DNA of 64,000 bases from Undaria pinnatifida (Eukaryota; Sar; Phaeophyceae; Laminariales; Alariaceae): NCBI GenBank assembly GCA_012845835.1, contig JABAKD010000002.1:496001-560000 (forward strand), in the 5' to 3' direction. Shown piece by piece: positions 3,340 to 31,753 of this stretch. The notes under the pieces are model-generated. The model had not been told where the DNA came from. It saw only the letters and a list, made by a program, of their open reading frames with translations, and made no database searches. How positions within the stretch are numbered: the first letter of the stretch is position 1; each line of letters opens with the position of its first letter. A program made the translations under genes and the position numbers.

Positions 3340-3489
3340 ATGAAGACTGCTGTTGGGCTGGTGGCGGCCCTGGCATGGGCGCATGCCTTTGCCACTGCTC
3401 AGACTACTTACAGCGTGGAAGACTGCTCTGAGCTCGAGGCGTTATCTCCCTTCGCAGAAGATGCTGTCGTCGACTTCGCTGCATCACCG
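3340..3489 (+). CDS. Gene A exon 1: signal peptide
   Basis: Residues 1-50, phase 0, donor GTGAGT. It holds a hydrophobic signal peptide followed by TTYSVEDCSELEALSPF. Gene B exon 1 has the same length and three amino-acid differences. Confidence 0.9.
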
Positions 3490-5650: not shown

Positions 5651-5682
<32 letters not shown>

Positions 5683-8600: not shown

Positions 8601-11600
8601 CGATACGCGGTTTGGATCGCTTTGTGTGTCGATACCGCCTCACTCACACCGCAATAATATGGTACCCTTAGAATACACTCCAATGTTTCGACCCTATATC
8701 TGGGCCAGTTGGTTGATAACGGTGACGTTGCTGCAGGGCATGCAGAGCATGTCACGTAATCACGCCGACGCAAATATCTCGGCAATTCTGCTCCAGTATG
8801 AAATCAATTGCAGCACGTCCTTAGCAACGCGCATCCCCATCTGCTACGTGCTGCAATTTATTTCCCACCGGAGCAGAGTTGCCGAGACATTTGCGTCGAC
8901 TTGATTACGTGAAATACTACTGCTGTGTACCGTGCAACAACGTCGTCGTTATCAACCACCTGGCCCAGAGAAAGGGTCAAACCATTGGACTATACAATCA
9001 CCATAGGGCAGAAGCATCCGCCCTGCCGGCGGTCATTCACCACATGTGCCGTCCCTGAGATCTGCCTGGTTAGTACAGTTTTGTTGTATACCTGTAGCTG
9101 TTCGATGCAGCGTTCCCAAAACAGCATGTTCCTGCAAAAGAGTGGTTACCGCCTTATTGAGTGGAAATCGCAACCGTAAGCTGAGAAGACCATAATATTG
9201 GAAATCTTTCACCAAAAGACTTCATCAGCTTTTTTTATTAATGATACTTACCGCAGCGGTGATTGAGTCGTGATGAAAGGCGTGGAGGGCCGCCGGGCTT
9301 CCTCTCGACGGATTGTTTTCGTGTGTTCAAGTCCATGTTTGGTTGATGCTTTAGGTGACTATCCGTGCTAAATAGTTACTAATCCACCCGACCCCCGCCA
9401 CCCTGCCCGTTTCCTGCCTAACAGATATCATGCGATACCAATACCAACATGAGGGTGACGGATGGCGCCACAGTGGAGTTAACATCGTCTCTTGCGGAGT
9501 TGAACCTCGTCAACGTTCGATTCGTGCTGAGAAGCGCCTCCTCACTGGTGGTGTCGGCAGCCAACATTCAGTGGCAAAGCGAGGAGACAAACGATGTGAG
9601 CTCGGAGCTAATATCAATGCGTACTGGGCGAACTGGGTTCTTGCAATCGTCCACTCTGTAGTCGATTTAGTTTGAACAATTTGCGCAGGTACATTGCATG
9701 CAGGTGCACCTCGTGCACATCACCTATATATTCCGGTCGCGATACACAGATCGGGATTCGTCAACTCGCACTCGTCCGATTTTGATTCTCGCTTTGACGA
9801 GTGATACGAATAGAGATGCACATGCACCACTTTTTTTCAGAGATGTTCCTCAATTTGGGAGCTTAAGACCTCCCCCAAAAAAACTTATTTGGTGAAAATG
9901 AAACTGCTACCGGATGAAAAATGCCGTGGCCTAGGTGCACGACACGACAATCATCATCCAAAATAACGATAATGTTGTTTGTTTTTTCCGACCGTTTTGG
10001 GTTAAGGAGCCCCTTTATTCACGAAACGACAGTAGCCAAAAAAAGGTATACCTCTATCGTAGCCTGCGTCATTTCCAATACCAATTTTTGTATTCCTGGG
10101 ACATGGGATTGTAAAATCGGGGTTGGCCTTTAGTTTTCACAAAATCGTTTTTTCGGGGTGAGTGCGGTGCGGACTCGTAGAGCTGCTCATATATATGAGG
10201 AACCTCAGAAATAAACAACCTCGTGCAGCTCTACCATTGCAGCATGTCATCCTCATATTCTTCATATTTCCTCTTAATCCTTCCTCTTCATCCTTCTTCA
10301 TCCCTATCCTTCATCCTTCCTCTTCATCCTTTATCTGAATCCTATCTCTTCGGCTTTAACATGTGTCGTGCTGCCAACGGCCAGGACCGGAGTGGTGCTG
10401 CGCTAAACGTGAACTCGGGATGCACAGCAACCTTCAAAGAAGCCGTCACGTTCACCGGGTGCACCATAGTGGTAAGAAGATGATGCCAACCTTCAGCCTC
10501 ATGACGCCTGCTACAAGAGAAGGGGCGCTCTTTCGTCGAAAGCGTATATCTGACCGAGGAGCCTTTTCAAAACAGGAACTTCCCTAAACCGTTGGAAAAC
10601 GTTTTGCGTTTTGTGACACTATCTCATGTTTAGCTATCATAGGCGACAGAGTTGCACGTTGGTCAACTTATATATGTTTAGTCAACATCAGGTTTGGGGT
10701 GAGGTGTGTAGACGAGATTCCAACATCCGGGTACAGAGATAGGATAGTCCCAATCTTGCGGGTGACTCGGCCCGCTGAAAGCGGGGCACCAAAACATGCC
10801 CCTCCCACGGTCAAAACCCCGACTACTCACTACAAACCAATTGTCTTCGAATTGGAGCGAGACACCCACAGCGCTACGTCCACACTCCTGAGCTCCGCAA
10901 GAGCCCGGGGCTCTCAGCTGATGTAGGACACCCGACTTGATAGGTGGACCCAACGTGAGAAACAAAGCCGGAAACCCAGTGGGTGAATAAGTGTGTTCAT
11001 ATTCGGCGGGGCTCCCAACGGCAGTTACACTGTTAAGGTTTTTATGAATCTGCATGCCTATTCGTGTATAGTAAGCCCAGAATGGTTTTGGTGTATCTGC
11101 CCCCAGACGCTGCGGCAGGCCTCTTTTGTACCCTGGTACGCCATCACGTCATATATTTGAGTCCGTCGCCGCCATACCCACCGTGCCCCTTCCACAGAGC
11201 TATCCATGGGCAGACAAGGGCGGGGCCGTTTCTAACCAGGGAGATCTCGAGTTCCTGGGTGACGTCGTGATCATCGGGACGACAGAGGTGACTCAGGCGG
11301 CGGTAACGGGGGGCACGTGTAGGGAGCCTTGTGCCCTAGTGACGGTTGCTATGATGGAGCTAGCGCGGTTTGGTCAAACACGAATACGGCTTAAAGGGAT
11401 CCTCCTCAACTGCCGAACGATGCATTAGTTTGCCGGAATGGTGAAATGGTTTTCGTGACGTGCATGGGAATGTTAACCGATTTCTGCAACCGCTTTCGAT
11501 TGTTTTCAGAGTCAGCCCTTGAGCGAGACACCTTGTCCCTTTAGAGATTATAATCCCGATTATTGTACTGATTCCGAGTAGTTTGCCGCTGAAAATGAGT

Positions 11601-14600
11601 TGTTAAGGTCGTTTTTAGTCCGGTGCCTCCGGAGGATTAGGTTTTACCCCTGTCGTCCTGCAGCACGATGCGTCCGATTTCAACACTTCAACACTTCAAC
11701 GCCGCTCGCGCGAGTGTCTACTCCATTTGCTCTGAACACCGCGAGATTTTGTGTTTTTCTATGTTCCATTTTCATGCCATCATGCAAAATATGTTTGTTA
11801 TCCTCGCGTTTGCGTTTACGGCGGTAAATCGGCTTGTGAATACAGGTTACTAGCCTTAAGGTTCCCCTGAGGTACAACGTGGTACAGTGCGCATTCGCGC
11901 AAAGGAGACACCTTTGGCGTGGCTGGCTTCATACTGTGATGAAAATACTTCTTTTCATCTTGAGACACATCATAGCATGTAGACGAGCGCAGTTCAAAAG
12001 CAACATAATTCAGGTGGCAACTGTCCACTAGCTATCTCCAACAAGAGGAATTCGAAATATCAATCGCAGGACGGTTGCAATCGAACCTACTGGCTCTAAA
12101 CTTGAACTTTTTAAAGTTTCGTCTCGGACCTCCGTCTAACGCCCTTCCACTGGCACCCGGCCGGACCTAATCTGTGTCTAAAAGACCATCCGTGCACTAC
12201 GTTATTTGCTGTCTGACACGCCGACCGACTTGATTAACCCTAACGCCGACGTTATTGCTCCTCTGAAGCGTTTTCTGGTATCCCCCTCTTCTCGCTCGTT
12301 GTGCACACCTTTCCCAACTCGGCAATGGTGCAGGGCGGTGGGCTGTACAACACTGGGACTGTCACGGTGAGTAACACGTATGGAATCGTTTGGTGTATAC
12401 CAACGAACGCAAATCCTTGGAGATATTACCATATACCATGGTCGCATCGTGACGTGTTTTACTCGTGCGGCGTTGATGCATGCATATGGGGATCTCTAGC
12501 GCGGTGTATTTATGCCGCAGTGCCCATGTGCCCGCCACACATTGTTCAAAACGCTCCCCGGAACGGTTTGCGGCCGCATGCACATACTATAAATCTTTAT
12601 GTGTTGTTTTAACACACGTTGATCAGCTTTTCTTCATGCCGTGACAACGACGGAGACATTAAGAGGCCTGAAAACGCCCTTGTGTAGGGCCGTCAGATGC
12701 TGGCCGGCGATGTCAATAACCTGGTCGCATATGTGTGGGGTCGACCTAGAGTCTACGGTTGACGTTTCCCCAGATCTCTCCGCTGTCGGGCTACTTATAG
12801 GGATAGTATAGGGCGTCTGCAAAAGGCGCCATTTCACCTGTTAAAAGCATACACAGCACGGGATAAGCTGCCGGCATACATACGTTCGCACTTGCACTGG
12901 GAGCTCCGCATGCGACTTGTGCACGAGACAGGACACTGCGACAACGCCAGCACCTGGTATCTCATCTATTTTGTGGATGTCTGGGCTTGTTAACCAATGG
13001 TCGTGGGAACGCCATTCTTGTTTGGTGAAAATTCATCGTTGGTATTCCTATCAATAGGCCTCGACGTTTATGATCTGGTTGCATTCACGGTATACCATTA
13101 CTATTAAATACATATCCTTCTTTGATGGGGTAAATATATCCTCGAGCAAGTAGTCTCAAGAGTTTAGTGGTGCACCTTCATCGTAGGACGTGTCTCAGCT
13201 TGTTACTTTATTATAAACGATTCACAGCAGCCGCTCTTTCGGGTTTTCCTTGTGCGCTATATAGTGGACGCGATAGTCCAGAGTACCTCGACGCCTGCTG
13301 AGGTGGGGGTTGCATTGGTCTTGGCCAAACAGACTCGACGGACCCGATTCCTCCACCGTGCGTAGGTCCCGAGATATTGCCGTGATGAATGTGATTGGTG
13401 TCGTTGTTCACCGATTATTATAGACCATTGGGCTGCACGTGGGGTTGAACTTCCCCTTTGTTTGCTTGAGATGTACTGGTTTGACCCTCGCGTGGGATTT
13501 TCGCTGCTCTTTCTCCCGCCGTGCAGTTCCACGGAGATGCCACGTTCGAAGACAACCACAACGCCAACGTGAGTGCCCATCTACGGTACATTAGGAACTA
13601 GACGTTAGCCCAACGACGGCTGGACAAGGAGGGGCGACAAACATGTCCATCTTTTTTGTCACCCAGCACCATCACCATGACCGCCTCTAGCACTCGTTTG
13701 CTACGCGAGGGGGGGGCTGCACATGCAGGCCAATATGGTTGGAAACCCCTTTGTGTTTTTTGTCCGTGTCGTGTATAGGCCATGGTGCAGGTCATCGATC
13801 CGTTCTTGAATTTTTTGTCGCAGACATGTTTTCAGTGAGTGAGGTGCTTGTTATGTCCCCACTAATGTCCCGAACTAAAGAACATCACCTAAAATTAGGC
13901 CCACCCCTCTACCGTGTAGCTTGCTATTATTAATATTAATAGTGTGGCTTCAACTTCATATCATCGTTACTGTTAATAATGTACTTGCTACTCATTCATT
14001 AAGCTGCGATTCCACTCAAATCGGCTGCGAAACAGGTTCTCAGACGCCACGGACGCGAAACATTATGCATGAGTAGCACGTTTCATCAAGACCATGTCAG
14101 ATGGACGGGGAACCCCAACCGGTTTTCTCTATACCCAGTATCGCGAAATTCATGATGTGATTAACGCTAATTTTCGCTATACACCTACCTATACGGTAAA
14201 GCATGGGGTTGCGTTACGTTTGTGATATTTACGCTTAAGTTTCACGATACAATTATCGGTGTCGTAGATAATGGGATTGCGCACGTTTGCTGTCTAAGTA
14301 CGGTGTTGGGCGAGGACCGTAGAAAATTACACAAGTAAAACGGCTGAGGACCAATTCCTGCACCACTGTCGTGTCCTGTATTGACCCACACTAGCACATT
14401 GTAGTGGTCCCTCTATGCACTAGTGACGGTACGCGCCAGTCGGAATTAACTACCGCCACTGCTGTAGCACATACGAGCACTACTCCGCAAACTGCTGCAC
14501 TACCCACCGGCTGTTCTTATACGAGTCCAGTGATTTCACAGGCAATGTAACGGCCACCAGCTCAACTAACCCGGCACTGCGGCGGGAGCCTTATTGTACC

Positions 14601-17600: not shown

Positions 17601-20600
17601 CGTGATTCTAAGCCAACCACATGCCGGAGGGGAACCTTGTACATTATAGTAATGCATTAAACATTCTTGTTGGAATCCGCAACAACCAGGTATGTCCCGA
17701 TGTGTGGGGCCCCGACAGGCAAACATTTTTCACCCACCAAATCGTTGTTCCTATCGTTGTATGCGTCACTCGAGGCGGCGGTAGTCATGAAGCGCCCCCA
17801 TGGGTGGTGTGTCTAGAGATTTACATCGAAGCAATTCAGTTGCTTCGATTTTTTATAGTTTACGACATCGGCCGGTCCGACAAACCAAAATTTGCTTCAT
17901 TTCCCAAGATTGCTTGTGTGCCAGAACTTTGCCCCATGTCCCGTTCGACCTATCTTAAATCTCCAAAATGACGAAGTTGACTTTTTGGTAAACATTGATA
18001 CGGAATCACCAGTGTAACAGCGTAGGACTGTACGAGCATGGTTGGGTTGGGTTGGGTTGGATTTGATTGTCCTGGGTTGGGCTCGCAACCCTGTTCCATA
18101 TACCCCCGAGCCCGGGTACCTGCTCATAGCCACAACTGCAGTGCCTTGTATCGTAGTTTCTCCAGAGAACAGACTTTATGGCCACGCAACAGTAGTGGCT
18201 GGATGTGATGTTGGACATCTCCACCTTCAAACAGGCGGTGTGTTACCGTTAGACCGTGAAATAGGTAAGAACCTTGACAGACGCTACAACAGTGGTAGCA
18301 GCTACCGGGTATGGCACCTGTTAGTCTTTATGAAGCTCCACCCCTGGTTTAAACTTCAGAGTGCAGCCCGTTAAACAGTCCTATGGCCATGAGTACCCAA
18401 CACACAATATTGCAAGCAACTCGCATAGCATTTCAACGAAATTTGGTGGTGCAATAACCCAGGAGCTCCACCGGTCAGAAACAATGAGTCTCAAGTGTCA
18501 TGCCCCCACCCTAGCACGCTTTCCATTGTACAACAAAACTCATAAAAGGGTGTCCGACTGGCCGGCAGGGACGGTGTGATCAAGATGGAGGGACCTGTGA
18601 CGATCACCGCTAACGAGGCCCGCTATCAGGGTGGCGCCTTTTGGAACAGGGGCAACGTGTCCCTTCCCCAGGATGCCGACATTTCAGGAAACACGGCCGT
18701 CTTTGTGAGTAGCTCCCATGCGGTGTGAAAGGCGATGTCTTCTCTACGAACTCTCGTGCGGCCTATGATATGTTACTGTATAATGTTTGCCCTATTCTTC
18801 AGAGTACAGTACAGTACAGTACAGAACACCAAACCTAAATCAGATCCACAACACTCGGTGAAGGAATTCCCTTTTTCTTCATTAAGCTCAACGTACCGGC
18901 ACTCAGATGTTTTGTTCGGTGTCTTGAAAAACCAGCTTGCCTTTCCTACGATATTACCCTGCTTCTTATTGGATGTCTTGTTCGACGGTACGTTGGAAAG
19001 GTCAAGGTCACAAGACGCCACGAATTCACCTTGCACAGGCGTCCTGCAGCAGACGAACTCCTCAAAAGACAACATCGGTTAATCAACCCCCCCCCCCGGT
19101 CTTCTCACTCCTTCCGTCCATGTCAAAACCCACTGCCAGTGCCCCGGTATCAAGAACTACGAAGACTGGGAACGGAGCTCCCCCGAATACACTAGACGCT
19201 ACTCGGACCCCAGCGGTTTGGTCGAGTTCTCCGACGGGTCCAGCTACTACGGCAGCGACATCGCCATTTGCTACTTTGGAGAGGACGTCGGCAACGGTGC
19301 GGATACGGCAGTAACAATTGATTCTGACGCGACCGACTGTGATGCGCTGTTTGGAGAGGGGAAGACTCTTGGCGGCTACTCGGTGTTGACCTGGGACACA
19401 AGGTTGATATCCGCAGTTAACCTCGTGGGAGGTTCGAGCGGCTTCGACGTGTCGTGCACCAACCACTCGGTGAGAAGAGAGCAGGAAATACATGAATCAC
19501 GTGCTGTCAAGTTCGTTAGTTTGTTCTGCCCTGGTTCCCTGAACCACGCACAAACGCAACCGTTTTTTTGACCCAGTGTAAAGTGCCCTCAGGCTATCAT
19601 AGCTCCGTAGGGTATTCGATGTATTGCGCAGAACAACCTCGATGAACGGCATGGCAAATAAGTTGTATGCAATTATAGTAGTCTAATGGAGCACCTCAAA
19701 TTAAAGAAGACCGACTTTCGTTTTGTTTTGTGTGTTTCACCGTGCCAAGATTATCTTCGTGACGGGAGGTGGTGAAGTGACGGTCACATCGACGGCCGAC
19801 ACCTCGACATTCTCCAACATCCGCTTCGAAGTTGGCGGTTACTCCAACCTCTACTTTGATGTGCCAGAGCTGATCATGACGGGCATTGAAAACTCGGTGA
19901 GTGAGAAGCGTTGTGTGGCGAAATACACAGAAGTGGTACCGCTGTATAGCATTGCTGTGTTGCTGTTGCATGATGAAATGTCGGCGCGCGCCGGCGCTTG
20001 GGGTATGCGAGCGGTCCGATGTTGGATGCTCGGGCAGAGGTTCAGATATAGGCGTCAGGGGTGCATATGTAATTTTCTGGGCGTCCCTTGCTTGGGGAGC
20101 TTTATACCTCGCCCCAAATCTGGCGCTAACAACATAAAAAATTATGTAATTTTCTGGGCGTCCCTCGCTTGGGGAGCTTTATACCTCGCCCGAAATCTGG
20201 CGCTACCAACATAAAAAATTATGTACAACCAGACGAAACAAGCCCATGACGCAAAGCACACAAACAATATCACACAAAATACTCCTACATTATGGGAGAT
20301 TCGTTACACAGGTAAACGTTACGCCAAAAATTCGGTATGCCCGTATAGCATGATCGTAACAAGCCGAGTGCGAGTCGTACCACAGTAGGGGAGGTCTCCC
20401 CCAACGAGAAAGTTTGGCCTTTTCTAATGGGACGTCGAGTACGCACATGTGATAGGCATACTTCACGTGGAACGAGCCAAGTAACGGTGGCGTATATTTC
20501 TTTGCAACAGCGGCCGACCGCAAGACTGCCTGACCCTAACCGCAAGACTGCCTAACCCTACAAGCAGCATCCCTCCTCGTGCCGGAAGAGGCATATTTGC

Positions 20601-23600
20601 CGCAGTGGGACTGGTTGGGGTGCCACTGCAGTCCTACTACCTTGTCTCTCATTTGCCGCATTTTTTGTTGGATCTTACTAACAGTGCGGTAGGGGTAGCA
20701 CCAACGCCTTTCCGACAATACGCACCTCAGGAGGACTCTATACTTTCACCTGAAAACACTCCTTGAGCAATACGCGACATGGAATTACAACCCGATGAAA
20801 TAATCCGCGGCCTAGGTTCAAAGTTGATCACGCTATGGTAAAACTCATCGACGTCCAACACGTCCTGGGTTGGGCATCCCCGCGTTAATCAGATTTGTTC
20901 TTATCCTAAATGTGCTAGCACCGTTCTCCCAGCTTTCCATGATTTTCTGGTACGCGGTGCTTGGTCATGTTCTGCTCTCTGCTACTCGATCAAAAACGGT
21001 ACGTGCTCTCGCCTCGTGACCTGTCTCGATGATCTACCATTCTGGCACAGCCTATCGGGGGGTCCACGCACGTGGACAAGGGCAGCTCCTTGGAGTTCTG
21101 GTGGGACGTCAAGTTCCTGAGCAACACGCTCTTCTACCTCACGGACTCTTCCTGGGTGAGATTCGCCTAATGGTAGATGACGCGTGTGCTACGATAGATG
21201 TGCCACTTATTCGGCTAGATATTCTGCTGAAGCTGCTGAATGACGCCGCCCCTCAACGAAATATCGTCGAAAATTCATTCATAATGCCATTGATGCCATT
21301 GATGTCATTCTTGTTTTATGCAAAAATGTCGACTGAATAGCGGCTATTGTCATAGTAGGTCGTTGTGGTGTTCATCAGGCTGCGCTGGCATTCCTTAAAA
21401 GAAATGTATTCGGGTCAGTTGCAGATCTCAAGAGGCCACCCCAAGAAACGTTAAAGGGGATGGATCCTTACGGTCCTGTTCGTCTGCGAGTGCAATGTGC
21501 CAGAGTCTACAGTCGGTACGACATACCGGTATGTCACCAACTTAAGTTGGAGTGTCGGGCGAAGAGTTAGTCATTTCCCGGAGAGGTGCAGACTATCCGA
21601 CCTACTGGGTTTCCATACTTGCAGGAAGGTTGTTCAGTGCGGGATGCATTTTGTTTGTTTTGAGCAGAAGCTCTTTTCGCTGAGGGGGGCGGATATGTCT
21701 GGCTTTGCTCTTTTCACTTTGGTCGGCCCATCGACTGCCTATCAGGTTGCCTCGCTGGCCAACTTCCCGACTATTGTCACTTCTTTGGCTGCCGGTACCT
21801 ACCGATTAGTGATCGGTGGTGAACTCTGCCGACTCACAGCTGAACCAGATTGTAAATGGTATCCATGGTACAGAGCTTGCCCGGGGGGTGGTAGCATCGG
21901 TCAACCCGGTTTGCGTTCTGTTATCGTATCTGCTACGCTTACGACAGTAGTGTTGTGTTATTCCGTGTCCAGTCTTTGAAAATGCGCACGCGTTCTAAAT
22001 GTTCAACGTGCAGATTTTTGTTTCCGACTCTTTGTATCTCGCATCGACAAAATTATTCCGAGATTTCCTGTTCGTGAGGACGGACGGCGCTCAGAGGCCA
22101 TGCTGGGGAGTTCAACGAAATGGTCTGCTCATTCCTGGCCAGTTCAGCTGCTAATTGTTTGTTTGTTGAATGCAATCTTTGTTCGTCGAATGCAATCTTT
22201 GTTTGTCGAATGAAATCTTTGTTTGGCGAATGCGATCTTCGTCGAGTGCAATCTTTGTTTGACGAATTCAATGTTTGGTGGAACGCATTTTCGGTAAGAG
22301 GGTACCTTTAAATATATACATGTACCAGGTACATGCATATCAGCGACTCAGAAACACTTGCGCTAGCATCCCCCATCTTCTTCATCTGTTTTTGGTTGGC
22401 GATATGTACGGCGAAGGAAACTGTTTGGTTACATACGCCAGCAAACCATATAGATATATCTGGTATGTGCGATTTTGGTATGGTACAAATAAGCTCCATA
22501 CATATGCTAGTAGTAATGGAGGCATGTGCTAGTACAGTAACCTGGGTCTGGAGTGGTTACAAATGAACACCCACACTGCCTCACGAATCTCTTGCCGCAT
22601 GCAGAACGAGTACGGTGGCGCCGCTGTGTTCAACGCTGGACTAGTCATGTTCCGCGGACAGGCGTACTTTAGGGACAATGGACTGTACGAGCAGGATGGG
22701 CTGTATTCATCCAACCCGCCCGGTGGGGCCATCCTTAACGTTGGCGACATAGAGGTACAGTAGAGGCCCTCTCGATATCACCGGTTGAGTAGAGCTGGTT
22801 GCCCGGTACAGTTGCCGTGACACAGACGGGACCGAGAAGGAGTGGCCGCGTGGGCGGAAGTGCCCGTTGCCGCTGTAGTGTTGGCATTTCCGGCTGACTA
22901 TTCGTGGAGCACTACCTTCGTTTTCTTTCTCCGGCATAGCTTCGATACTATGCTCCAAACTGCAGGTCTGTGGGGAGGGGTTGTGAGGCGGGGCGGTATG
23001 CGTACGCTCATGCAGCGCTGCAGGCTTGCCGGTGTTGCGCGTGCACTTGAAATCCACATACCATATGACGACGTGCAGCTGATTGTGGCGTATTGTTATT
23101 CGAATCGTCCACTTACTCTGACCGCTGATGACGCTGTCGAATATCTCATTGCTTCACACCGAATTGATTGACATGTCATGGTTTGGATTCGTCCCTCGCG
23201 GTTACCTATTGTTTTCAATCTTGTTATTCAATCGTCCACCTACGCTTATCCCGGACGTCTTCTTTGATTGACGTCCTGATCTTTGTTTGTTGCTTTCTCA
23301 ATATAGTTCGTGGGTAAGACGAAGTTCTGGTACAACTTCAACCTTGGCGGAGGCAATGGAGGCGGTATTGCCAACGGTGGACAAATCTGGTTCAACAAAA
23401 GGACCGTCTGGCGCAAGTGAGCACCAACACACGCAACTGCTATTAGTGGACTGTAATTTGGGCGGTCCTCCGACACAATGAAAATGCTGACGCTGGTTGC
23501 ATTACGGGATGTGCGTCGGCCGAGTTGTGAACGGCTAATATTGTGCATGAACGACAGGAACGTTACACAGTGTCGTTTACAGTGCATACACAATAAGAAC

Positions 23601-26600
23601 GTTTTGCAGTGTTGGTCGCCGAAGTACTCAATTTTTTGGCGAGCATGATATCGTGCCCGCTATGTGCAATGTCATCCCGTGCTATCACAACTTCGCTTCG
23701 TTTTTCGAAGGCAGTACGCTCCGCTCAACCTGCATGATTATGTTGTCCCTGTTTTTCGACTGCTGCGAATGGCCAATTTGGTCGTCGTTGCCACAGCGAT
23801 TACTCTACCCACTGTGATCAATTGTTAACATTCGCCATGTATGTACTGAATTGACAACAAGTCCAGTTACAGCCTACCAGGTACACTTGAAATATGCTGT
23901 GGGGGTCCAGCTGTTGTATAACAACAAACGCGGTATGCCAGACGCCAGACATGTTATATGCCAAGCCCCTCGCTATCCTATCGTCTTACGTCTTTGGTTT
24001 GGTCTCGTTCAATTTCGCGACTTTCAGCCAAAACAGGTGATGCCGCACTCATCATGCGGCATGCATATGTTTGACCTAAGCCCTCTCCGGGTTCTGATCA
24101 TGTGTGCATAGGCGATTGCCAAAAGCGTCAAAACTGCTTGCCGTATGTGTGTCTTGCTGACTCGACTCATTTAGCTCGTAATAGACTACTCTAGTGATGG
24201 GGGATAAGATACGGTGTCACAACGTTATTGCCATGTTTTTCGCTGCCCAGAGCCGTTCACGTAAACGTGTTCCTCGTTTATCGACAATTCGATATGCTCC
24301 GTGTTACAAGTGGCTGTTGATGGTTTCGTTTCTGACGTTGTTATAATGTCATATTGCTATAATGTTGTGTTGTTAGCTGTAGAGACCTACTCAAACTGTG
24401 GAATTATCGTTTCGTATGAAATAAATGCGAGCATAGTTGCTTTAGAAGTTTCATAGATCAAAAAAACTTCGGTCGGGTTGGGAGAACGAATGCGTTCGAA
24501 GTCACGTTGTTTTCGGTGAAATACTGAGCTCCACATGTTAGCAGCTTAATTGAAACTTCTGCAGCACCCTTCGTATGGTGTATAACTCCATTTGTCAACC
24601 TCGGGGCACCCTCCCGGCGTTTGAAGGTCCTGAATAACACTGACATCCTATCCGCAATTGACCTGGTTGTGGATGCGCCCGTAACAAAATGCGCAGCAAC
24701 TTGGTCGAGTGGAAAAACGCGGAGGAGGGTTCCTCTATTTATGGCGGCCATGGAGCGGCGCTGTACAACTATGGGCCTTTCGGGACGACCGAATTCTACA
24801 GCAAGGCCTACTTCAGGGACAACGTCGGCGGATTCGTGAGTGTTTTCTTATTTTTGCCACCTGCATATTGGCCTGCCGTGTCGGGTTGGTCGCGCTTCAT
24901 GGTTGGATTTAATCCGCCGGAGTAGATGTCGAGTGTAAAAACACTCCGGGTTGTCCGTTGCCAAGCTGGTTGACCCGTCGAACGATGGGATACTTTATGT
25001 ATGTACGTACACACCTAGTCGATTACCGTCTCCCTCGAACGCCAAAATTTTTTTTCTAAATTACCAAATGTTAATAGTGATTTTAACTGTTAACTCGAAC
25101 CCTAACTTTATAATTGTAAGTTTCACCGCCTCGTCATGTAATACATGTGTGTTATTTAATATTCTCTTCCCCCGGTTCTGGTTGGCCGCCCGTGTCGTCG
25201 GTGTCTCTGAAGTTGTCGTTGTTCTTCTTTACCAACCAGCATTGTCGGCAGTGATGTAGAAAATATCATAACTTTGTTTGTGCTTCGTTATTTCCGTTCC
25301 GGTTCCTCAGCGAGGCGGTGCCGTTGCCGCCGACGGAGAAGGTGGTGACGAATCTACTGAGGTCACAAACAAGATCACCTTTGGACACAAGACTACCTTC
25401 AAAGACAACAGCTTCGACGTGCGTATATTTTTGTTGGCCTGTGCTCACTGAGAAGGGAAGGAAGGCGTACCCATTGTTTGGTCCCATTGCAAGCGATCAA
25501 TCAAGTCACACGTTTGCTCTGGCAATTTCGACAAAAAAGCAGTCATTTTGACTTACGGTTCCTTCAGTTACACTTCTTGCGCCTGAACTTGTTGTCTTTC
25601 GTGGATAATTTATTAGTTGACTGCCGTTTTGGTGAGGTCACCTTTAGCTGCTTTTTCTACAGTAGCACGCGGCCTACGACGTGTTGTGGATTTGATGCTG
25701 CACATGGATACGTGTGGAGCTTCCATCTTAAGCACGTTTTGTTTTGTTCCTTGCATTTTGGATGCACACATGATTCAACATTTCATCACGTCGACAGTTG
25801 TTCAAACGTTTGCAATGCTGACTTGATACCCTCGTGTGCAGATACCGGTATTTTCGTCGTACACCTCTTACTATATATTGTTGATGGTACAAGATGCGTG
25901 TTGCTGGGAGCGTGAACGCCCCTCCGCTTGTGATTCAATACGTATGTATGTATGACTTTTATGACTGTACTACTATACATAATCTTTCGTTTTTCCATCA
26001 CAGGTTACTCTCTGCACATTGCCTATAGGACGATATACTCCAGTAGTCCTTTTTTCGAGCAAACGATGTAGGTACGAGGGACATTCATTTGGTTGTCATA
26101 TATCGTTCCCGACGCACAGGTTGACCGCCCGGACACCGGAGGCGCTGGACTGTGGGTCTACCAAGGGGCGTCGGTGGAGTTCCAGGACAAAGTCGTCTTC
26201 AGGTGGGTCAAGACCAAATGCTTTTAATACAACACAAAGACTAACGCTAACTTGTTCGCGCCCTGCCTCACTCCAAGAAATGCATCACTCGTACGAAACA
26301 CTGACCTCAATCAGAAACCTATGAATTGCAACCGGATGAACAATCTCACTCGGCTATGTCATGGGCTTTGGAAATGTCGACTTATTGCGCAAAGTACGAC
26401 CAGATGGGGTACTCATTCGACTGACGCGCCACGGCAGTCACGGCTACAACTAGTACCTGGTAGTAGTTTTTAAATGATGTAATATCCTTGTCGGAGCACG
26501 TGTCCAAAGATTGCGAAGGTCTGCTCCTACCGGATCTGTATGTCTAATAGTCTATTATTATTATTATGATGATGGGAAGTGTCCCCCTAAACCACCGTGG

Positions 26601-29600
26601 TCGAGGTATTCACCTATAGTGACGAACAAGCCGCGTGAAAGACGATAACGAATTATGAACGGCCCGTGCCTAGATAGGATTGCCTTCATCGTCGCACCCC
26701 AATACTGAACAACAACATTAGAATGTATGCACGCATCACCTGTTAGTTTTTGATAGCATACTCATCAAACGCGTGTTAATTCACTTTGTATCTTCCACTT
26801 TGTTTGGTTCGCTTGTTCGGAGTTGAAGATCTGTTGGTACTCAACACGCAAGCGACTCAACAATAATGTATCCAACACAACGACAGCGCTGTGTACTATA
26901 ACAGCACAATGCCGAGCGCGATCTCCGCGAACGTCTTTAGACCCTACCAAGGCTAGGGTAAGCGCGCCAGCATCCGGCGATAAATGGGCACAGCAGTACT
27001 GCGACGTACGATACGTACTTTTGGATCATCTCTAACTTAGTACCGGGTATTTCGTAATCTACCGATCGATCTCTCTCTGTGTTGTTACGGTTACATTTCC
27101 TTTACCGAACAACTGGTATCAATATCCCAACCGGGAGTTATATAGTCCGATCTCCAGAAAAAGGCTGTACAATAGTGGGATGACTTGCTTTTCCGTCTTT
27201 TTGGACTATTTTTATACGACTCGGGGCCATTCGCGAGCTTGGCTACCCTATTTCTCTGGGGGTTTTACAGATGAACTGGGCATGGAAGTGCCCGTTACGT
27301 TGCGCCAAGAAAACGTAGACATTTGTCCAAGTGCGGCGTTGAGTGCCTCGAAGTTCTTGCCATCACATCATATGTGAAAAAGGGCACGTACCTCTGCTAC
27401 CATGACTGAAGTCTCGCCTCAGTCACAAGTCGTGTCCCGTTTAGTATATTAATATCGACCCTTCGCCACCAACAAGGCGGACAGGACAGCCTCATGGCTT
27501 TGTGTTCTTATTCGAATCGTGATGTTTTGGCGTCAACAAAAAGAGAGCATTTTATAATGGGATACACCGTTTCCGACCTTGGTTGCAGACTTTTAAAGAA
27601 CGCGCTACACATGCTGCTTCCGTTCCTGTTTGTTCCCTCGCGCTAATGTTTCGCCAGGCGAAACTTGGCCATCAACGGTGCGGCAATCATGAACGGTGGC
27701 GGCTATGTCAACTTTTCGTCGGCCGACATCATCAACATGATCGACAACGTCGCCACGGAGTCGGTGAGGAGTAATGAGTGAGGAGTGCCGTACGCTACAT
27801 AATATGTATACTAATCATATCATAACTGCAGAGGTTCATTACGCCTTTGTCGGAGGCTGTTGACTTGACCTGACCTGACTTGCCTTGATAAACTATTAAT
27901 GAACTGATTTGACCTGACTTGATTTGATTTAGTTAAACTAAACTGACTTGACTCTAATCCTGACCCAGCACCTGCTTGTGTTTGAAAGTAAACTGCAATC
28001 CCCACGCGTTGAGCAGGCTCATGACCTAGGTACAACATAAACATTTATACTGCGAAAGAAGAAGGACGTTCCGGTGTTTTTGCGGCAAGGAGCCCCTTCT
28101 TGCAGATAACACTTTAGCCATAAATGTTGCGCTGCAGTACCTCTTTCGTAGCACGCCTCGAGTTCCTATTTTATTTTTATCGGATTAACTCACCACTGTT
28201 TTTTTTATGGCGAATCTGACGCGTGGTGCGACAAAGATACAGTACCCCTCTTTGTCCCAAACCCCTTTATCGACCGCCGGTGCTCTCCACCTGCTGTACG
28301 TATTTTTGGCGGGATACCGTTTTCGACGGACGGTGCTCCTAACCTGGAGAACTAGCCAGCATATGTACTTTTATAGTACTATTTATATACTAAGTATTTA
28401 AATTTGTATAATATATACTGCTCCAGTATATATTATGTGTGAGTTCGGTACAATCCCAAGGTACTTTTATAGTACAATTATATATATAAATTTTATGTGC
28501 GTTCGGTACAATCCCAAGGCCACGGGAGCACTGATGCAATAGGGTTCAACTACGGGTTTTTTTCCGTCGGTTTCAGCCACTATTTGGGTTCGATATGGAC
28601 TTCCTGAAGCAAGGAGCCTGAGAGAACGTTTAATGCACCTGTTACGTACAAATCGTTCGACGAAATTTCAAGCAAATGTCGACAAACGCTTGGGGAAGGG
28701 GGGGGGGGGAATCAAGACAACCAGTTAGCACATTTGTACCAGTCCGAAAATAACAATGATCACGACGCGTCTTCCTTTTTAGTGTTTGAAACTCTGTGAT
28801 CTTACGCAGTATGTAATAAAAAAAACATACCACAATAGATTGAATAGATGGAATAGATGGTTCCATCACGCAGGAGGTGATAAGTAAACACACTCAATAA
28901 ATAGGTGGTGCCATCCTTTGATATATATTGATGGGTGTATTGGATTAATGACGATAGATAACCCTACTGTTCGGGGGGCACCCACCCACGTTTTCCACGC
29001 CGAGGTCGGAGAATTGGCATGCGTGGCTCGGTACCCCACTCGACAGGAAAGAATTGAACACTTTCTCGACGTACAAGTCAGCATCGTAGAAACAACAAAA
29101 TATTTGCATGGGGAAGCATGTCGTGGAACCGAAAAAGACATGTAGACGAAACATATACCAGTAAGTATGCTTTGTAGGTAGTTACATTCAATGATACAAA
29201 AGGCTCGAAAAGTGACGGTCATACCGTGTGCCAATATATGCTGTATGGTAGTACACGAGGTTCTCCTTCGGGATGCGGGTAATCGTTAAATCTCGCGGGC
29301 GTCGCAAGGCCAAATGGGAGACACCGGTGACACACGGGTATATACACATTTTCCCACCTATAATGGTGTTACGCGTACTCACATAGATTAACCCTACTGC
29401 TCTTCTTAGAGGAAACGTGTGGCTCCAAAGGAAGAGTAGCAGTAGCAGTAGTAGTAGTACTAGTAGTAATCAGCGGGAAGAGTGTGATAGCGGTGGGTGC
29501 ACGTTGTACTGATGTACGCGCAAACCAGTTATCGGTGGTCAGGGGATGCTGTGTATACCCTACGTGTAATAGAGGTCGTTGCTATATAGTACGCAACATG

Positions 29601-31753
29601 TGTATGCACTTGGTTCTTATGGATAGGGTTGACCAGCCGATGTCAGTCACTCTTGCACGTTGTACAATAATTAATCGGTAGGCGACAACATTTTCGGAAT
29701 GTGTGGTGCGCACGTGGTAGTTCTTTCCGTGAGCTGAATGTAGTGGTCAACGCTTTGGTACTGCAACCGGGAAACCTTGATGTATGTACTCCTCACTCAT
29801 CATTTACCCCCCCCCCGTAGAAAGCAGAGCTATTAATATTAATAATATAATAGATCGATTGTGCTCCTATCTGAACCCGCCACCACTTGATGCATGTGGT
29901 CAGAAATGTATATTACAAAAATTAAAATACACTCCAGCTGTGAGATCGAATATTTTTTCGAAACTCATCTTTGCAAGCTGTTTGTGATACTCCGATCGCG
30001 CGTATATGTGTATGATATGTATGTACGACAATAGCAACAGAGCTAGAACCGATCCACCCAGCCCATCAGATGACGTCCTGGGCGCGTGGCGAACGCTCAA
30101 ATAGAACTGTACCCGATTTTGGCCACAGCAGCACCGTGTATATGTATCTGATTTTGGCTATCGCCAATTAGGAGTTATCTATCCTTGAACCCTACCCGTG
30201 GTTCCACTCTGCCCAAAAGAAATATTCGACGTGGTCGAGGCTTGCGTACATGCTGCGATCGCGATGCCTGCCACCCTCGCCGCGCTCGGGGCCATCTTCT
30301 AAGTTTTCCCCTCTCTATGTCCGTGTGAGCCGTATCCCGCGCGGAGAGATGCAAGCCGTGCTCTGTGGCACTCGTTCCAACACTCGGCTGCTCTCGGCCT
30401 CTACCTACCTGCTGGCATTCGCTCTGTCCGGAAATATACCACCGAGATAGTCTGTTAATATATGTTTTTGTTGAATCGAAAACGGTCCTTACATTCGGAC
30501 ATGTCTATTAATAGTTACCCCGCCAGAGAAGAAAGCACACACTGGGTCAACCACGCCCACAGACTATTTCGCTCCTGCCTCGACCTCCGGCCGCCTGCGC
30601 GAAGGGAGAGCGCAGGCCGGATTACCCTTGTCTGCACCCATGCCCACGCACCCACGTGGTGATCCGGGGCAGAAACGGCCCAGGGCGGCGCGCCGCCAAA
30701 CACTACACTACTCCGATCCACATGTATGTGTACTGCTGCTATTATACTACTGCTGTATGTTGCTGCTACTGCTGCTGTTTTTGCTGCCGCTGCTGCTGAG
30801 GTTAATGTAGTCCGGGCGGTTGCCGCTACTGCTGCTGTGCTACTGCTGAAGTTAGTTGAGTAGCGGGGCATTTTTTCAAGAACAAAACAACGATGTACAA
30901 TTTTATCAAATATCATTTCAAAGTTTAAAATACAATTTGGGGTGTTCTAAGTTACCTGCGCGTCTCAGGGGAGCGGAACGGAATCCTTTGCAAAATGGAG
31001 CCAGCTAAGCGACGTTCAATGCGCCGAGCGCCGCCACGGAGCTTGGCGGAGATTCCGACATGCTTCGTAATGAACCAATGGCAGGCCAGCTTGCCCCGCG
31101 GCCGAAAGTGCGAGAAGAAACACTTGGCCGACGGAGGGCAACGATCCAAAGTAAAACAAAGATAATATTTTGCATAAGCATAATATAGCGTACCTGGTAC
31201 AGTATATCCTTCGTAACTGTTGGGTCGAATGCGCCCTCAAAATTGCTTCCATTGTAGAGGTCAGAGAACCGGGGAGGTGGATGTGCTGTTACAAACGACA
31301 GTAGACGCGTGCAACACGATATATAATATAGGTAAAAGAACAGGTTTTCGACAAAACAGCAGTTCTGCGTGGAGGTGTCATTGTTGATCGGGCTGCACTT
31401 TTCATGATTTTTCCGGAGTTTCATTTCACTTCTCGAGTTTTGGGATGGACCTCCTTGAGCGCGGATCTTCATATTCGGCAGATTGCAACCTCAACTGTTG
31501 TGACACCCGTCGCTACCCCATGGTGACAACCTTCATTTCCAATACGCCTCATTTATTCTCTCGCCTACAGTGCCCAGACATCAAGAACTACGACAAAGGT
31601 AGCTTCTACAACAGAGACCTATTCGGTGACATCGACGACCCGGAGGGGGAGTGCGGCTCGTCGAGCGACCTTTGCACCTGGTTCGAAGGCACGGTCACAA
31701 TCGGCAGCGCTGACCCGATCGTTGGCGAGACTTCCGACATTTGCGAGTTTTAA
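3340..31753 (+). CDS. Gene A: secreted Pmp-like right-handed beta-helix protein, 20 exons, 865 aa
   Basis: Joined CDS of 2598 bases from 20 exons (listed separately). Every junction keeps one open frame: 16 introns are phase 0 and three (after exons 9, 15 and 18) are phase 2. Residues 1-21 form a signal peptide (MKTAVGLVAALAWAHAFATA, then Q). Residues 51-805 carry repeated beta-helix rungs with GGA/GGG starts and FxDN or SGN ends, for example GGGLYNTG, GGGMYASSG ... FEDN, GGAAVFNAG ... FRDN and GGAVAADG ... FKDN. These match the chlamydial Pmp repeat pattern. Residues 380-489 are a Cys-containing insert domain. The C-terminus (residues 806-865, ending SDICEF) shows no transmembrane helix, GPI signal or autotransporter barrel, so an extracellular or cell-wall protein is inferred. 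The start is the ATG at 3340, conserved in gene B. No catalytic function is visible; carbohydrate binding or adhesion are possible roles for such helices but undemonstrated. Confidence 0.85.
3697..4060. repeat. Minisatellite in gene A intron 1, about 5 copies of a 65-80 bp unit
   Basis: Units share 'gaaccgaaatgacc', 'tatttcgcaagatata' and 'cgcactgctctagcctt', starting near 3722, 3792, 3866, 3944 and 4008. The matching place in gene B intron 1 (about 43825-43880) holds one diverged unit, so the array expanded in copy A. Confidence 0.9.
4432..4668 (+). mobile_element. SINE-like retroelement insertion with (AAC)n tail
   Basis: A segment of about 235 bp ending in 'accacggacttcataatg' and an (AAC)n run. 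Gene B intron 1 has an uninterrupted site at about 44780-44800, where sequence matching the A left flank ('gacgat') runs straight on to that matching the right flank ('ctccagatct'). A related copy lies in inverse orientation at about 4895-5150. A simple-repeat tail and an empty site suggest retroposition; no RNA polymerase III boxes were verified. Confidence 0.7.
4895..5150 (-). mobile_element. Inverse-orientation copy of the (AAC)-tailed element
   Basis: Read on the minus strand this matches 4432-4668, including 'gcgtcagctgtg', 'accaccttgggttg', 'ttccctgggg' and 'agagtgactg'. With the copy at 4432-4668 it makes an inverted pair. It is shared with gene B (about 45000-45255), so it predates the duplication. 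Confidence 0.7.
5634..5722. repeat. CAA/AAC trinucleotide microsatellite
   Basis: About 30 AAC-type triplets with a few substitutions, in intron 1 of gene A. The corresponding place in gene B has only a few triplets (near 46995). Confidence 0.95.
6262..7108. mobile_element. 847-bp DNA-transposon-like element with 23-bp terminal inverted repeats
   Basis: The left end at 6262-6284 ('gcgggttccgag', one mismatch, 'taaagccgga') is the inverse of 7086-7108. Flanks share 'cacag' just outside. Gene B intron 1 reads continuously across the position near 47450-47465 ('aacacagcaca' into 'catcacttccg'), so B is the empty site. No transposase frame is visible inside, so it looks non-autonomous. Exact ends and target duplication are uncertain because four C residues separate the right TIR from the direct repeat. 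Confidence 0.8.
8185..8245 (+). repeat. Diverged member of a short interspersed repeat family
   Basis: The segment with 'gcaagctgtgtgtgatactt', 'cgtcgcgcttgttacgggg' and 'tgttcgtcc' resembles the second half of the repeats at 43245-43400, 43465-43610 and 43985-44150. The gene B counterpart is at about 50110-50175. Confidence 0.5.
8672..8993. repeat. Long inverted repeat (foldback), arms about 147 bp, loop about 28 nt
   Basis: The left arm 8672-8818 is inverse-complementary to the right arm 8847-8993. It includes 'gggccag(t/g)tggttgataac', 'cgacgcaaat(a/g)tctcggcaa' and 'ttgcagcacg'. It lies in intron 1 of gene A and is kept at the homologous place in gene B (50600-50923). It could be a foldback/MITE-type element or a template for hairpin RNA. 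Confidence 0.85.
9425..9595 (+). CDS. Gene A exon 2
   Basis: Residues 51-107, phase 0 at both ends, acceptor ACAG and donor GTGAGC. It encodes beta-rich sequence with VTDGATVELTSSLAELNL, a beta-helix strand/turn pattern. One residue differs from gene B (T to A near the end). Confidence 0.88.
10385..10471 (+). CDS. Gene A exon 3
   Basis: Residues 108-136 (SGAALNVNSGCTATFKEAVT), phase 0, acceptor CCAG, donor GTAAGA. It is one beta-helix rung. Two residues differ from gene B. Confidence 0.85.
11198..11287 (+). CDS. Gene A exon 4
   Basis: Residues 137-166 with KGGAVSNQGDLEFLGDVV, a Pmp-type GGA rung; phase 0; acceptor ACAG, donor GTGACT. One residue differs from gene B. Confidence 0.88.
12334..12366 (+). 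CDS. Gene A exon 5, 33-bp micro-exon
   Basis: Residues 167-177, GGGLYNTGTVT, exactly the GGG half of a rung. Acceptor TGCAG, donor GTGAGT. Amino-acid identical in gene B (54122-54154), where the donor is GTAAGC. Confidence 0.85.
13527..13568 (+). CDS. Gene A exon 6, 42-bp micro-exon
   Basis: Residues 178-191, FHGDATFEDNHNAN, the FEDN half of the rung begun in exon 5. Phase 0, acceptor TGCAG, donor GTGAGT. One residue differs from gene B. Confidence 0.85.
14661..14885 (+). CDS. Gene A exon 7
   Basis: Residues 192-266, two rungs: GGGGLFTEDGLVTFKG ... FIGN and GGGLHVDVSDDDVG ... LFSGN. Between them, residues 227-233 hold a cluster of replacements relative to gene B. Phase 0; acceptor TGTAG, donor GTGAGA. 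Confidence 0.9.
15000..15215. repeat. GGGTC-rich repeat segment in intron 7
   Basis: A roughly 200-bp segment starting 'gggtcatgacc' and ending 'agcgaactggcccgtgaaaa'. Gene B intron 7 has two relatives, at about 56665-56880 and 57450-57655. Confidence 0.7.
16354..16431 (+). CDS. Gene A exon 8
   Basis: Residues 267-292, EGGGMYASSGMVIFEDLVTF then EDNMAT: one complete Pmp-type rung in one exon. Acceptor CAACAG, donor GTAAGA. One residue differs from gene B. Confidence 0.92.
16771..16895 (+). CDS. Gene A exon 9
   Basis: Residues 293-333 plus two bases of codon 334 (phase 2). Rungs SGGGGMTVYSGNVDF and NGGAFKIRDE. The donor GTGAGC overlaps an apparent in-frame TGA; splicing restores GAG. Five residues differ from gene B. 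Confidence 0.9.
17320..17402 (+). repeat. Degenerate telomere-like CCCTAA tract in intron 9
   Basis: A run of CCCTAA, CACTAA, TTTAA and CCCAA variants. It is present in gene A intron 9 and not seen in gene B intron 9. Confidence 0.75.
18569..18704 (+). CDS. Gene A exon 10
   Basis: Completes codon 334 (GAG) and encodes residues 335-379, including GGAFWNRGNVSLPQDADISG then NTAVF. Acceptor GGCAG, donor GTGAGT. Five residues differ from gene B. Confidence 0.9.
19140..19469 (+). CDS. Gene A exon 11: 110-residue insert domain
   Basis: Residues 380-489, beginning CPGIKNYEDWE and ending DVSCTNHS. It has four Cys and an acidic, Gly/Asp-rich composition, unlike the rungs. Phase 0, donor GTGAGA. Its start resembles that of exon 20 (CPDIKNYDKG). 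Five residues differ from gene B. Confidence 0.92.
19750..19896 (+). CDS. Gene A exon 12
   Basis: Residues 490-538, starting IIFVTGGGEVTVTS, with GGYSNLYFDVPELIMTG. The acceptor is CCAAG/TCAAG rather than CAG, and is the same type in gene B. Two residues differ. Confidence 0.88.
20069..20222. repeat. 77-bp tandem duplication in intron 12
   Basis: Two adjacent copies of a 77-bp unit ('gtaattttctgggcgtccct' ... 'aacataaaaaattat'), with a handful of differences. Gene B intron 12 has one diverged unit. Confidence 0.9.
21051..21155 (+). CDS. Gene A exon 13
   Basis: Residues 539-573, PIGGSTHVDKGSSLEFWWDV onward to TDSSW. Acceptor CACAG, donor GTGAGA. Its first 23 bases are identical to the partial exon at the end of the window. 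Confidence 0.9.
22161..22275. repeat. 20-bp tandem repeat in intron 13
   Basis: Units of the type 'gtttgtcgaatgcaatcttt' repeat with exact 20-bp spacing for four copies, followed by two shortened copies. Confidence 0.9.
22605..22754 (+). CDS. Gene A exon 14
   Basis: Residues 574-623: GGAAVFNAGLVMFRGQAYFR then DNG, and PPGGAILNVGDIE. The acceptor TGCAG is good. The donor GTACAG is non-consensus, and read-through would stop after two codons, which supports a splice here. Confidence 0.82.
23307..23416 (+). CDS. Gene A exon 15
   Basis: Residues 624-659 plus two bases of codon 660 (phase 2). Contains NGGGIANGGQIWFNKRTVWR. Acceptor ATATAG, donor GTGAGC. The donor overlaps an apparent TGA. Confidence 0.85.
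24697..24835 (+). CDS. Gene A exon 16
   Basis: Completes codon 660 (AAC) and encodes residues 661-706, with YGGHGAALYNYGPFGTTEF and YFRDN. Acceptor CGCAG, donor GTGAGT. Confidence 0.88.
25311..25418 (+). CDS. Gene A exon 17
   Basis: Residues 707-742, RGGAVAADGEGGDESTEV ... TTFKDNSFD, a full rung with a GG start and FKDN end. Acceptor CTCAG, donor GTGCGT. Confidence 0.88.
26120..26202 (+). CDS. Gene A exon 18
   Basis: Residues 743-769 plus two bases of codon 770: DTGGAGLWVYQGASVEFQDK then VVF. Acceptor CACAG, donor GTGGGT, phase 2. Confidence 0.85.
27658..27763 (+). CDS. Gene A exon 19
   Basis: Completes codon 770 (AGG) and encodes residues 771-805, INGAAIMNGGGYVNFSSADI ... NVATES. Acceptor GCCAG, donor GTGAGG. 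Confidence 0.85.
28366..28520. repeat. AT-rich local duplication in intron 19
   Basis: The order 'gtacttttatagtac', an AT-rich stretch, then 'gttcggtacaatcccaagg' occurs twice in succession. Confidence 0.75.
29240..31190. mobile_element. Dispersed 1.9-kb element in gene A intron 19
   Basis: Co-linear with 48185-49925 in intron 1 of gene B, from 'ttcgggatgcgggtaa' to 'aagataa(t/c)attttgc/acg'. Because the two copies sit in different introns this is a dispersed element, not part of the tandem duplication. A 95-bp segment (29909-30003) is a nested insertion absent from the B copy. No transposase, reverse transcriptase or terminal repeat is recognised. CTG/CTACTG triplet runs lie near 30728-30845. 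Confidence 0.75.
29909..30003 (+). mobile_element. Nested 95-bp short interspersed repeat
   Basis: Contains 'cactccagctgtgagatcga' and 'catctttgcaagctg'. It matches repeats in gene B intron 1 (43245, 43465 and 43985 onwards) and interrupts the 1.9-kb element relative to its B copy, so the short repeat has moved. Confidence 0.7.
31571..31753 (+). CDS. Gene A exon 20 (terminal), stop TAA
   Basis: Residues 806-865 and stop. It begins CPDIKNYDKGSFYN, close to the start of exon 11, and ends GETSDICEF. Acceptor CTACAG, four Cys, no hydrophobic tail. Confidence 0.87.
   Translation, partial: CPDIKNYDKGSFYNRDLFGDIDDPEGECGSSSDLCTWFEGTVTIGSADPIVGETSDICEF

What the first reader, a model, noticed from the sequence alone, without database searches (positions are those of the whole stretch)
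3340..31753. A eukaryotic, 20-exon gene for a Pmp-type beta-helix protein with one-rung exons
All 20 exons join in frame to 865 residues, and most exon ends fall between a rung end (FEDN, FRDN, FKDN, SGN) and the next GG start. The repeat pattern is the one that defines the chlamydial polymorphic membrane proteins, yet here it sits in an intron-rich secreted eukaryotic gene without the autotransporter barrel. Rung-per-exon structure with mostly phase-0 introns would let rungs be duplicated or lost without frameshift.
Basis: partly seen in the sequence, partly recalled or inferred. Interest (0 to 1): 0.75.

Follow-up and report, generated by a model that had tools for sequence, protein, structure and literature searches.

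The report
Intron-rich algal beta-helix-like gene family
The window holds a real 20-exon gene, probably from a kelp, for a large and probably secreted repeat protein of likely beta-helix fold; copies with the same exons lie beside it and elsewhere on the same contig, and it looks like a divergent, intron-rich branch of a repeat family already annotated in brown algae rather than a gene that swaps its repeats by exon.

Summary
The 20-exon, 865-residue gene is real. A tandem copy, B, starts in the window at 43008 and ends beyond it: 20 of 20 exons have identical lengths, 19 of 19 introns are GT-AG, 817 of 865 residues are identical, dN/dS 0.028/0.200. Exons are 93.8% identical without indels; introns 67.3% with 405 indels. 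Copies D and E on the same contig (66% identical) keep the same exons. The product has a signal-like N-terminus and two homologous modules. 5 of 8 module-2 introns match module-1 introns in place and phase (0.36 expected; 4 of 20000 under a stricter null): an intron-bearing module was duplicated as a block. 'One-rung exons' is overstated: by hand 5 of 20 exons hold exactly one rung; a strict test puts 6 of 19 introns between rungs (2.5 expected). Rung gain or loss by exon is not seen in the four copies read. Pfam Chlam_PMP fails its cut-off, NCBIfam POMP_repeat barely passes; the genome holds many Chlam_PMP frames, distantly related. Fold, species and function are inferred; structure prediction was off.

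The parts
3340..3489 (+). Copy A exon 1: start codon, signal-like stretch, start of N-cap
9425..9595 (+). Copy A exon 2: N-cap of module 1
10385..10471 (+). Copy A exon 3: one rung
11198..11287 (+). Copy A exon 4: one rung
12334..12366 (+). Copy A exon 5: first half of a rung (GGGLYNTGTVT)
13527..13568 (+). Copy A exon 6: second half of that rung (FHGDATFEDN...)
14661..14885 (+). Copy A exon 7: two rungs
16354..16431 (+). Copy A exon 8: one rung
   Evidence: E copy; D copy by eye
16771..16895 (+). Copy A exon 9: one rung and the start of the next; ends in phase 2
18569..18704 (+). Copy A exon 10: end of a rung and one further rung
19140..19469 (+). Copy A exon 11: C-cap of module 1 (CPGIKNY...), leads into the N-cap of module 2
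19750..19896 (+). Copy A exon 12: N-cap of module 2, similar to exon 2
21051..21155 (+). Copy A exon 13: one rung
22605..22754 (+). Copy A exon 14: one rung and the first half of the next
23307..23416 (+). Copy A exon 15: second half of a rung, start of another; ends in phase 2
24697..24835 (+). Copy A exon 16: end of a rung and one further rung
25311..25418 (+). Copy A exon 17: one rung
26120..26202 (+). Copy A exon 18: most of a rung; ends in phase 2
27658..27763 (+). Copy A exon 19: end of that rung and the last rung
31571..31753 (+). Copy A exon 20: C-cap of module 2 (CPDIKNY...), stop codon
3185..3339 (+). 5' flank alike in copies A and B: candidate promoter / 5' UTR (inference)
   Evidence: part of the 347-column, 85.9% blastn match 3185-3522 to 42844-43190
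43008..43157 (+). Copy B exon 1
51359..51529 (+). Copy B exon 2
52251..52337 (+). Copy B exon 3
53066..53155 (+). Copy B exon 4
54122..54154 (+). Copy B exon 5
55082..55123 (+). Copy B exon 6
56301..56525 (+). Copy B exon 7
59145..59222 (+). Copy B exon 8
59574..59698 (+). Copy B exon 9
61487..61622 (+). Copy B exon 10
62060..62389 (+). Copy B exon 11
62727..62873 (+). Copy B exon 12
63978..64000 (+). Copy B exon 13, first 23 bases; exons 13-20 continue to window-equivalent 79407 (L009, L010, L011 region)

Best explanation
The feature is a 20-exon gene kept by selection, one of at least six copies on one contig of a eukaryotic genome, inferred to be that of a brown alga, probably a kelp. It encodes an acidic, probably secreted repeat protein made of two tandem modules, each with an N-cap, about eight or nine GG...FxxN repeats and a cysteine-bearing C-cap beginning CP[GD]IKNY. 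Each module most likely folds as a right-handed parallel beta-helix. It is a divergent, intron-rich relative of the Chlam_PMP repeat proteins of the same genome. Shown: exon structure, purifying selection, tandem and older copies, homology of the two modules with shared intron positions, weak but significant similarity to Chlam_PMP frames. Inferred: secretion, beta-helix fold, species, and function: most likely a structural or adhesive protein of the cell wall or extracellular matrix that presents a rigid acidic solenoid, rather than an enzyme, a membrane autotransporter or a hypervariable receptor. The double module arose by duplicating a block of exons that already had introns.
For: Exon model: 20 of 20 exons the same length in A and B, no exon indel, dN/dS 0.14; copies D and E. 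Copies on one contig. Two modules: local score 200 against a maximum of 88 in 300 shuffles; hhalign 320 columns, 28% identity, probability 97.3, E 1.9e-11. Shared introns: 5 of 8 within one residue and in the same phase, 0.36 expected, 0 of 20000 uniform placements; with placements restricted to loops between rungs, 4 of 20000 reach 5 of 6 phase-0 introns. Kinship with Chlam_PMP proteins: 46.6 bits to L022 against 29.3 best of 100 shuffles and 23.9 reversed; 7 of 8 frames compared exceed the best shuffle; L020, L021, L022 score 98.5, 57 and 62.2 bits for PF02415; POMP_repeat 15.5 and 15.9 bits vs 15. Hydrophobic N-terminus, pI 4.15, C-terminus without a hydrophobic segment among the top windows. 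Genome of 511,146,479 bases fits the 511.3 Mb given for Undaria pinnatifida in a table of PMC12116465.
Against: Pfam Chlam_PMP is below its cut-off. No RNA evidence. A rung profile from module 1 does not score module 2 above shuffles (whole-sequence 0.5 bits; best shuffle 9.0), so the single rung is weakly conserved between modules. 3 of 8 module-2 introns do not match module-1 introns: one lies 7 columns off in the same loop, and both phase-2 introns lie elsewhere; with a tolerance of two columns the stricter null is reached 134 times in 20000, and without the mid-rung intron 547 times. Some introns are nearly as alike as exons between A and B. Species: the same table gives 114 scaffolds for Undaria, the genome here has 68 contigs, and the search for a brown-alga marker family did not complete. 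The most hydrophobic 19-residue window is residues 78-96, not the N-terminus. Function rests on class knowledge alone.
Confidence: 0.7

Rival explanations
1. Rung-per-exon structure is an active modularity device: exons are duplicated, lost or alternatively spliced to vary the binding surface, as described for LRR exons of brown-algal ROCO genes.
For: 16 of 19 introns are phase 0; 12 of 19 by hand lie at rung or cap borders; ROCO genes of brown algae are reported with one LRR per 72-bp exon, exon shuffling and alternative splicing (section 11 of PMC11378527).
Against: Same exons in A, B and D (20 each) and E (19 of 19 fetched), to dS about 0.86; copies C and F were seen only in part. Exons vary from 33 to 330 nt and by hand 5 of 20 hold exactly one rung; low dN/dS. 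Skipping exon 9, 10, 15, 16, 18 or 19 singly would shift the frame (lengths).
Confidence: 0.12
2. The gene is really two adjacent genes (exons 1-11 and 12-20) that the reader and I joined.
For: Each half is a complete module with caps.
Against: The exon 11 donor and exon 12 acceptor are kept in A, B, D and E; exon 12 has no methionine or hydrophobic stretch at its beginning; the tandem copy repeats the whole 20-exon unit.
Confidence: 0.06
3. It is a cell-wall polysaccharide-modifying enzyme of beta-helix fold, such as a mannuronan C5-epimerase or a lyase.
For: Brown algae have families of such enzymes (recalled), and the fold would be shared.
Against: None of the three Pfam families listed at E up to 10 is an enzyme; the epimerase motif DPHD (recalled) is absent and no D.HD occurs.
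Confidence: 0.1
4. It is a member of the 'imm upregulated 3' family expanded in kelps.
For: That family is called brown-alga specific and expanded in Saccharina japonica (passages of PMC4421812), and 10 'imm upregulated' copies are given for Undaria (passage of PMC7929912).
Against: No sequence of that family was at hand to compare; copy numbers are no evidence of identity.
Confidence: 0.1

Closest known systems
Chlam_PMP repeat proteins of the same genome (PF02415; e.g. frames in L020, L021, L022)
   Same: GG...FxxN repeats; similar N-cap by eye in the alignment; clustered copies
   Different: The three scanned pass the Pfam cut-off strongly and many listed matches lie in long uninterrupted frames, up to 2089 aa; the present gene has 19 introns, two modules and a CP[GD]IKNY C-cap, and fails the Pfam cut-off
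Chlamydial polymorphic membrane proteins (autotransporters)
   Same: Repeat style; the POMP_repeat model just passes
   Different: No autotransporter barrel found, 19 introns, Chlam_PMP model below cut-off
Brown-algal LRR-ROCO genes (PMC11378527, section 11)
   Same: Solenoid repeats in a gene with many short exons in the same kind of organism (if this is a brown alga)
   Different: ROCO LRR exons are reported as uniform 72-bp, phase 2, shuffled, with positively selected sites; here exons vary in length, are mostly phase 0, are neither gained nor lost in the four copies read, and show low dN/dS

Membership tests
Chlam_PMP repeat (PF02415) | Whole-protein score at or above the gathering score of 20.6 bits | tested here: not met
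   10 bits, E 1.3
POMP_repeat (TIGR01376) | Score at or above the curated cut-off of 15 bits | tested here: met
   15.5 bits for copy A, 15.9 for copy B; marginal
Chlamydial Pmp autotransporter | C-terminal outer-membrane beta-barrel | tested here: not met
   no barrel among the three Pfam families listed at E up to 10; the C-terminus is a cysteine-bearing cap ending in ICEF
Right-handed parallel beta-helix | Solenoid of three-strand rungs in the structure | not testable with these tools
   structure prediction switched off; no PDB match by sequence; repeats and kinship only suggest it
Secreted protein | N-terminal signal peptide and no membrane anchor | tested here: inconclusive
   hydrophobic windows starting at residues 1-5 (best 1.25) and none near the C-terminus among the top 12, but residues 78-96 score higher (1.31); no signal predictor was run
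Exon-shuffled repeat family (ROCO type) | Exon number varies between close copies | tested here: not met
   same exons in A, B, D, and in E as far as fetched; copies C and F seen only in part
Imm upregulated 3 | Sequence similarity to the Ectocarpus IUP3 proteins | not tested
   no such sequence was fetched or compared

The most novel reading that the evidence does not exclude
A kelp contig carries a family of double-module extracellular beta-helix proteins whose rungs are written partly as separable exons, built by duplicating whole intron-bearing solenoid modules, and used in the alga's matrix or in recognition (for instance of cells or gametes), with isoforms made by splicing.
Probability: 0.12. 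Interest if true: 0.65.

Novelty: new variant of a known kind. Interest (0 to 1): 0.4.

Why it matters
A repeat style best known from chlamydial surface proteins occurs in one algal genome both in long uninterrupted frames and in a 20-exon, double-module gene family. Intron positions shared by the two modules record the order of events: introns first, block duplication after. That gives a clean case for asking how solenoid proteins grow in eukaryotes, and a defined set of genes for probable matrix proteins of unknown function.

Tried and rejected
Pmp membership as such: rejected on the Pfam cut-off and the missing barrel. Relatives elsewhere: none confirmed in viral contigs (2 pattern stretches) or prokaryote genome contigs (16 stretches); none in phages with residues 1-489; PHROGs with residues 1-489: one match, E 0.016, unknown function, not followed. 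PDB by sequence: none for the protein or a two-row profile; two genome relatives gave one weak shared chain, 7w5z_U2, E 0.0029 and 0.0025, and L020 also 9if7_67 at E 0.68, not enough to assign a fold. A rung profile did not lift module 2 above shuffles (one search failed). Missed exons: conserved ungapped blocks exist in introns 1-4, 7 and 10 of A against B (introns 1-11 examined) and were not tested for coding, so a further exon is not excluded. Rfam (gathering) and tRNA scans of the window: 0 hits. A search for the brown-alga marker family PF19114 (marker status recalled) did not complete. Literature: the listings showed no description of this intron-rich family; most listed papers were not opened. 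Zambounis 2012 was not held and is known to me only through citations.

Full report
Observation. I rebuilt the gene by reading exon ends and splice sites; 20 exons at 3340-31753 give 865 residues and a stop, 19 of 19 introns are GT-AG, 16 in phase 0 and 3 in phase 2.

Independent test of the exon model. A tblastn of the product against the window found a second copy, B, on the same strand from 43008. Its first 12 exons lie in the window; the other eight lie wholly or mostly in DNA fetched beyond it. In 20 of 20 exons the length is the same, and 19 of 19 introns of B are GT-AG. The proteins share 817 of 865 residues; 162 base differences fall 33/21/108 on codon positions 1/2/3, dN 0.028, dS 0.200. 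Exons are 93.8% identical (2436 of 2598) without an indel; the 19 intron pairs are 67.3% identical over 23135 aligned columns with 405 indels, 305 not multiples of three. The contrast is uneven: introns 2 and 3 are 89.4% and 91.9% identical, intron 7 is 50.9%. A chance chain of open stretches would not behave so.

The family. The window is bases 496001-560000 of contig C26 of a genome of 511,146,479 bases in 68 contigs. A search of that genome with the protein listed 52 matches, all on C26 (150 candidates, 52 scored, so a lower bound). By place and strand they sort into A and B, a third copy C at 627-678 kb on the minus strand (10 exons seen), and a second cluster near 2.72-2.95 Mb with D (minus), E and F (plus; 6 exons of F seen), plus a terminal-exon match alone at 696 kb. 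A diverged terminal-exon-like stretch lies upstream at window-equivalent -39630 to -39505, minus strand; no other exon of it was found in the 40 kb fetched upstream. I read D and E: D has 20 of 20 exons (exon 8 and the start codon placed by eye), E has 19 of 19 in the DNA fetched, exon 1 not being found there. Exon lengths equal those of A or differ by multiples of three; one D donor is GC. A-D identity is 554 of 839 (66.0%), dN 0.239, dS 0.864; D-E 657 of 793 (82.8%), dN 0.105, dS 0.434; both without D exon 8.

Anatomy. The N-terminus is hydrophobic (windows starting at residues 1-5), as in a signal peptide, though residues 78-96 score slightly higher; pI 4.15; 12 cysteines. Residues 51-489 and 490-865 are homologous modules: local score 200 against a mean of 53 and a maximum of 88 in 300 shuffles; hhalign aligns 320 columns at 28% identity, probability 97.3, E 1.9e-11. 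Exons 11 and 20 both begin with CP[GD]IKNY. On that alignment, made without knowledge of introns, 5 of 8 module-2 introns fall within one column of a module-1 intron of the same phase; 0.36 are expected, and none of 20000 uniform placements reached 5. The other three do not match: one is 7 columns off, both phase-2 introns lie elsewhere. Because introns may favour loops, I repeated the test with placements drawn only from hand-set loops between rungs: 5 of 6 phase-0 introns match, mean 1.09, 4 of 20000 reach it; with a tolerance of two columns 134 of 20000; leaving out the mid-rung intron, 4 of 5 match and 58 (tolerance one) or 547 (tolerance two) of 20000 reach it. So an intron-bearing module was most likely duplicated as a block. 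The rung-exon match itself is weaker: with strict motifs 6 of 19 introns lie in inter-rung gaps, 2.5 expected, P 0.02-0.03. By hand, 12 of 19 are at rung or cap borders and 5 of 20 exons hold exactly one rung; two half-rung introns (exons 5|6 and 14|15) sit at the same place inside the rung in both modules. A rung profile made from module 1 did not score module 2 above shuffles.

What it resembles. Pfam Chlam_PMP scores 10 bits, below its 20.6 cut-off; NCBIfam POMP_repeat scores 15.5 (A) and 15.9 (B) against 15. The same genome gives 53 listed PF02415 matches (196 candidates, 150 scored), 48 marked over the cut-off, 13 of these only with their neighbours; they cluster on several contigs, often in long uninterrupted frames, up to 2089 aa; none lies at a copy of the present family; of 14 control genomes only Escherichia coli gave a match. 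Eight loci were fetched; L020 and L026 hold the same frame. Compared with composition correction, the best frame scores 46.6 bits, and 7 of 8 exceed the best of 100 shuffled queries (29.3); the reversed query reaches 23.9. Six of the eight (five distinct frames) were picked by a pattern and aligned with exons 1-2 and 11-12; the likeness of the N-caps is judged by eye. Three frames scanned in Pfam (L022, L020, L021) score 62.2, 98.5 and 57 bits for Chlam_PMP; L021 also has a Notch LNR domain. Four further loci with PF02415 matches in short frames show repeats split over several frames, so other relatives may also have introns (not modelled).

Organism and literature. The species is inferred. 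Mean intron length in copy A is about 1.36 kb (from the lengths); PMC4421812 gives 1,057 bp for Saccharina japonica (passage). [quoted passage not shown] For ROCO genes of brown algae, one LRR per 72-bp phase-2 exon, shuffling and alternative splicing are reported (PMC11378527, outline and section 11). The ten search listings named under Tried and rejected showed no account of the present family.

Interpretation. The most likely role is a secreted, rigid, acidic repeat protein of the wall or matrix, kept by purifying selection and multiplied by tandem duplication. The fold is inferred, not shown. Rung shuffling by exons is possible for phase-0 exons but is not seen in the four copies read; exons 9, 10, 15, 16, 18 and 19 could not be skipped singly without a frameshift (lengths).

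Noticed in passing
window 4433-4667 and 4922-5340: Repeated element with inverted ends (MITE-like) in intron 1 of copy A; matches of 84-87% identity on many contigs (6327 candidates, 40 scored).
   Followed up: partly
window 144-1187: Very long ATAC microsatellite, 263 copies.
   Followed up: no
window 3703-4049: Tandem array of a 70-base unit, 4.9 copies, in intron 1.
   Followed up: no
window 30008-31182 and 48779-49923: Intron 19 of copy A and intron 1 of copy B share about 1.2 kb at 78% identity, perhaps a mobile or repeated element.
   Followed up: no
window 8679-8994 and 50602-50918: An intron 1 segment also matches copy B in inverted orientation at 77%, as a palindromic element would.
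   Followed up: no
window 41192-41328: G-rich tract of 137 bases.
   Followed up: no
L021 409-3051: Chlam_PMP repeat frame with a Notch LNR domain near its N-terminus; by eye the frames in L024 and L025 have a like cysteine-rich start.
   Followed up: partly
window-equivalent -39630 to -39505 (L018), minus strand: Lone diverged stretch like the terminal exon of the family.
   Followed up: partly
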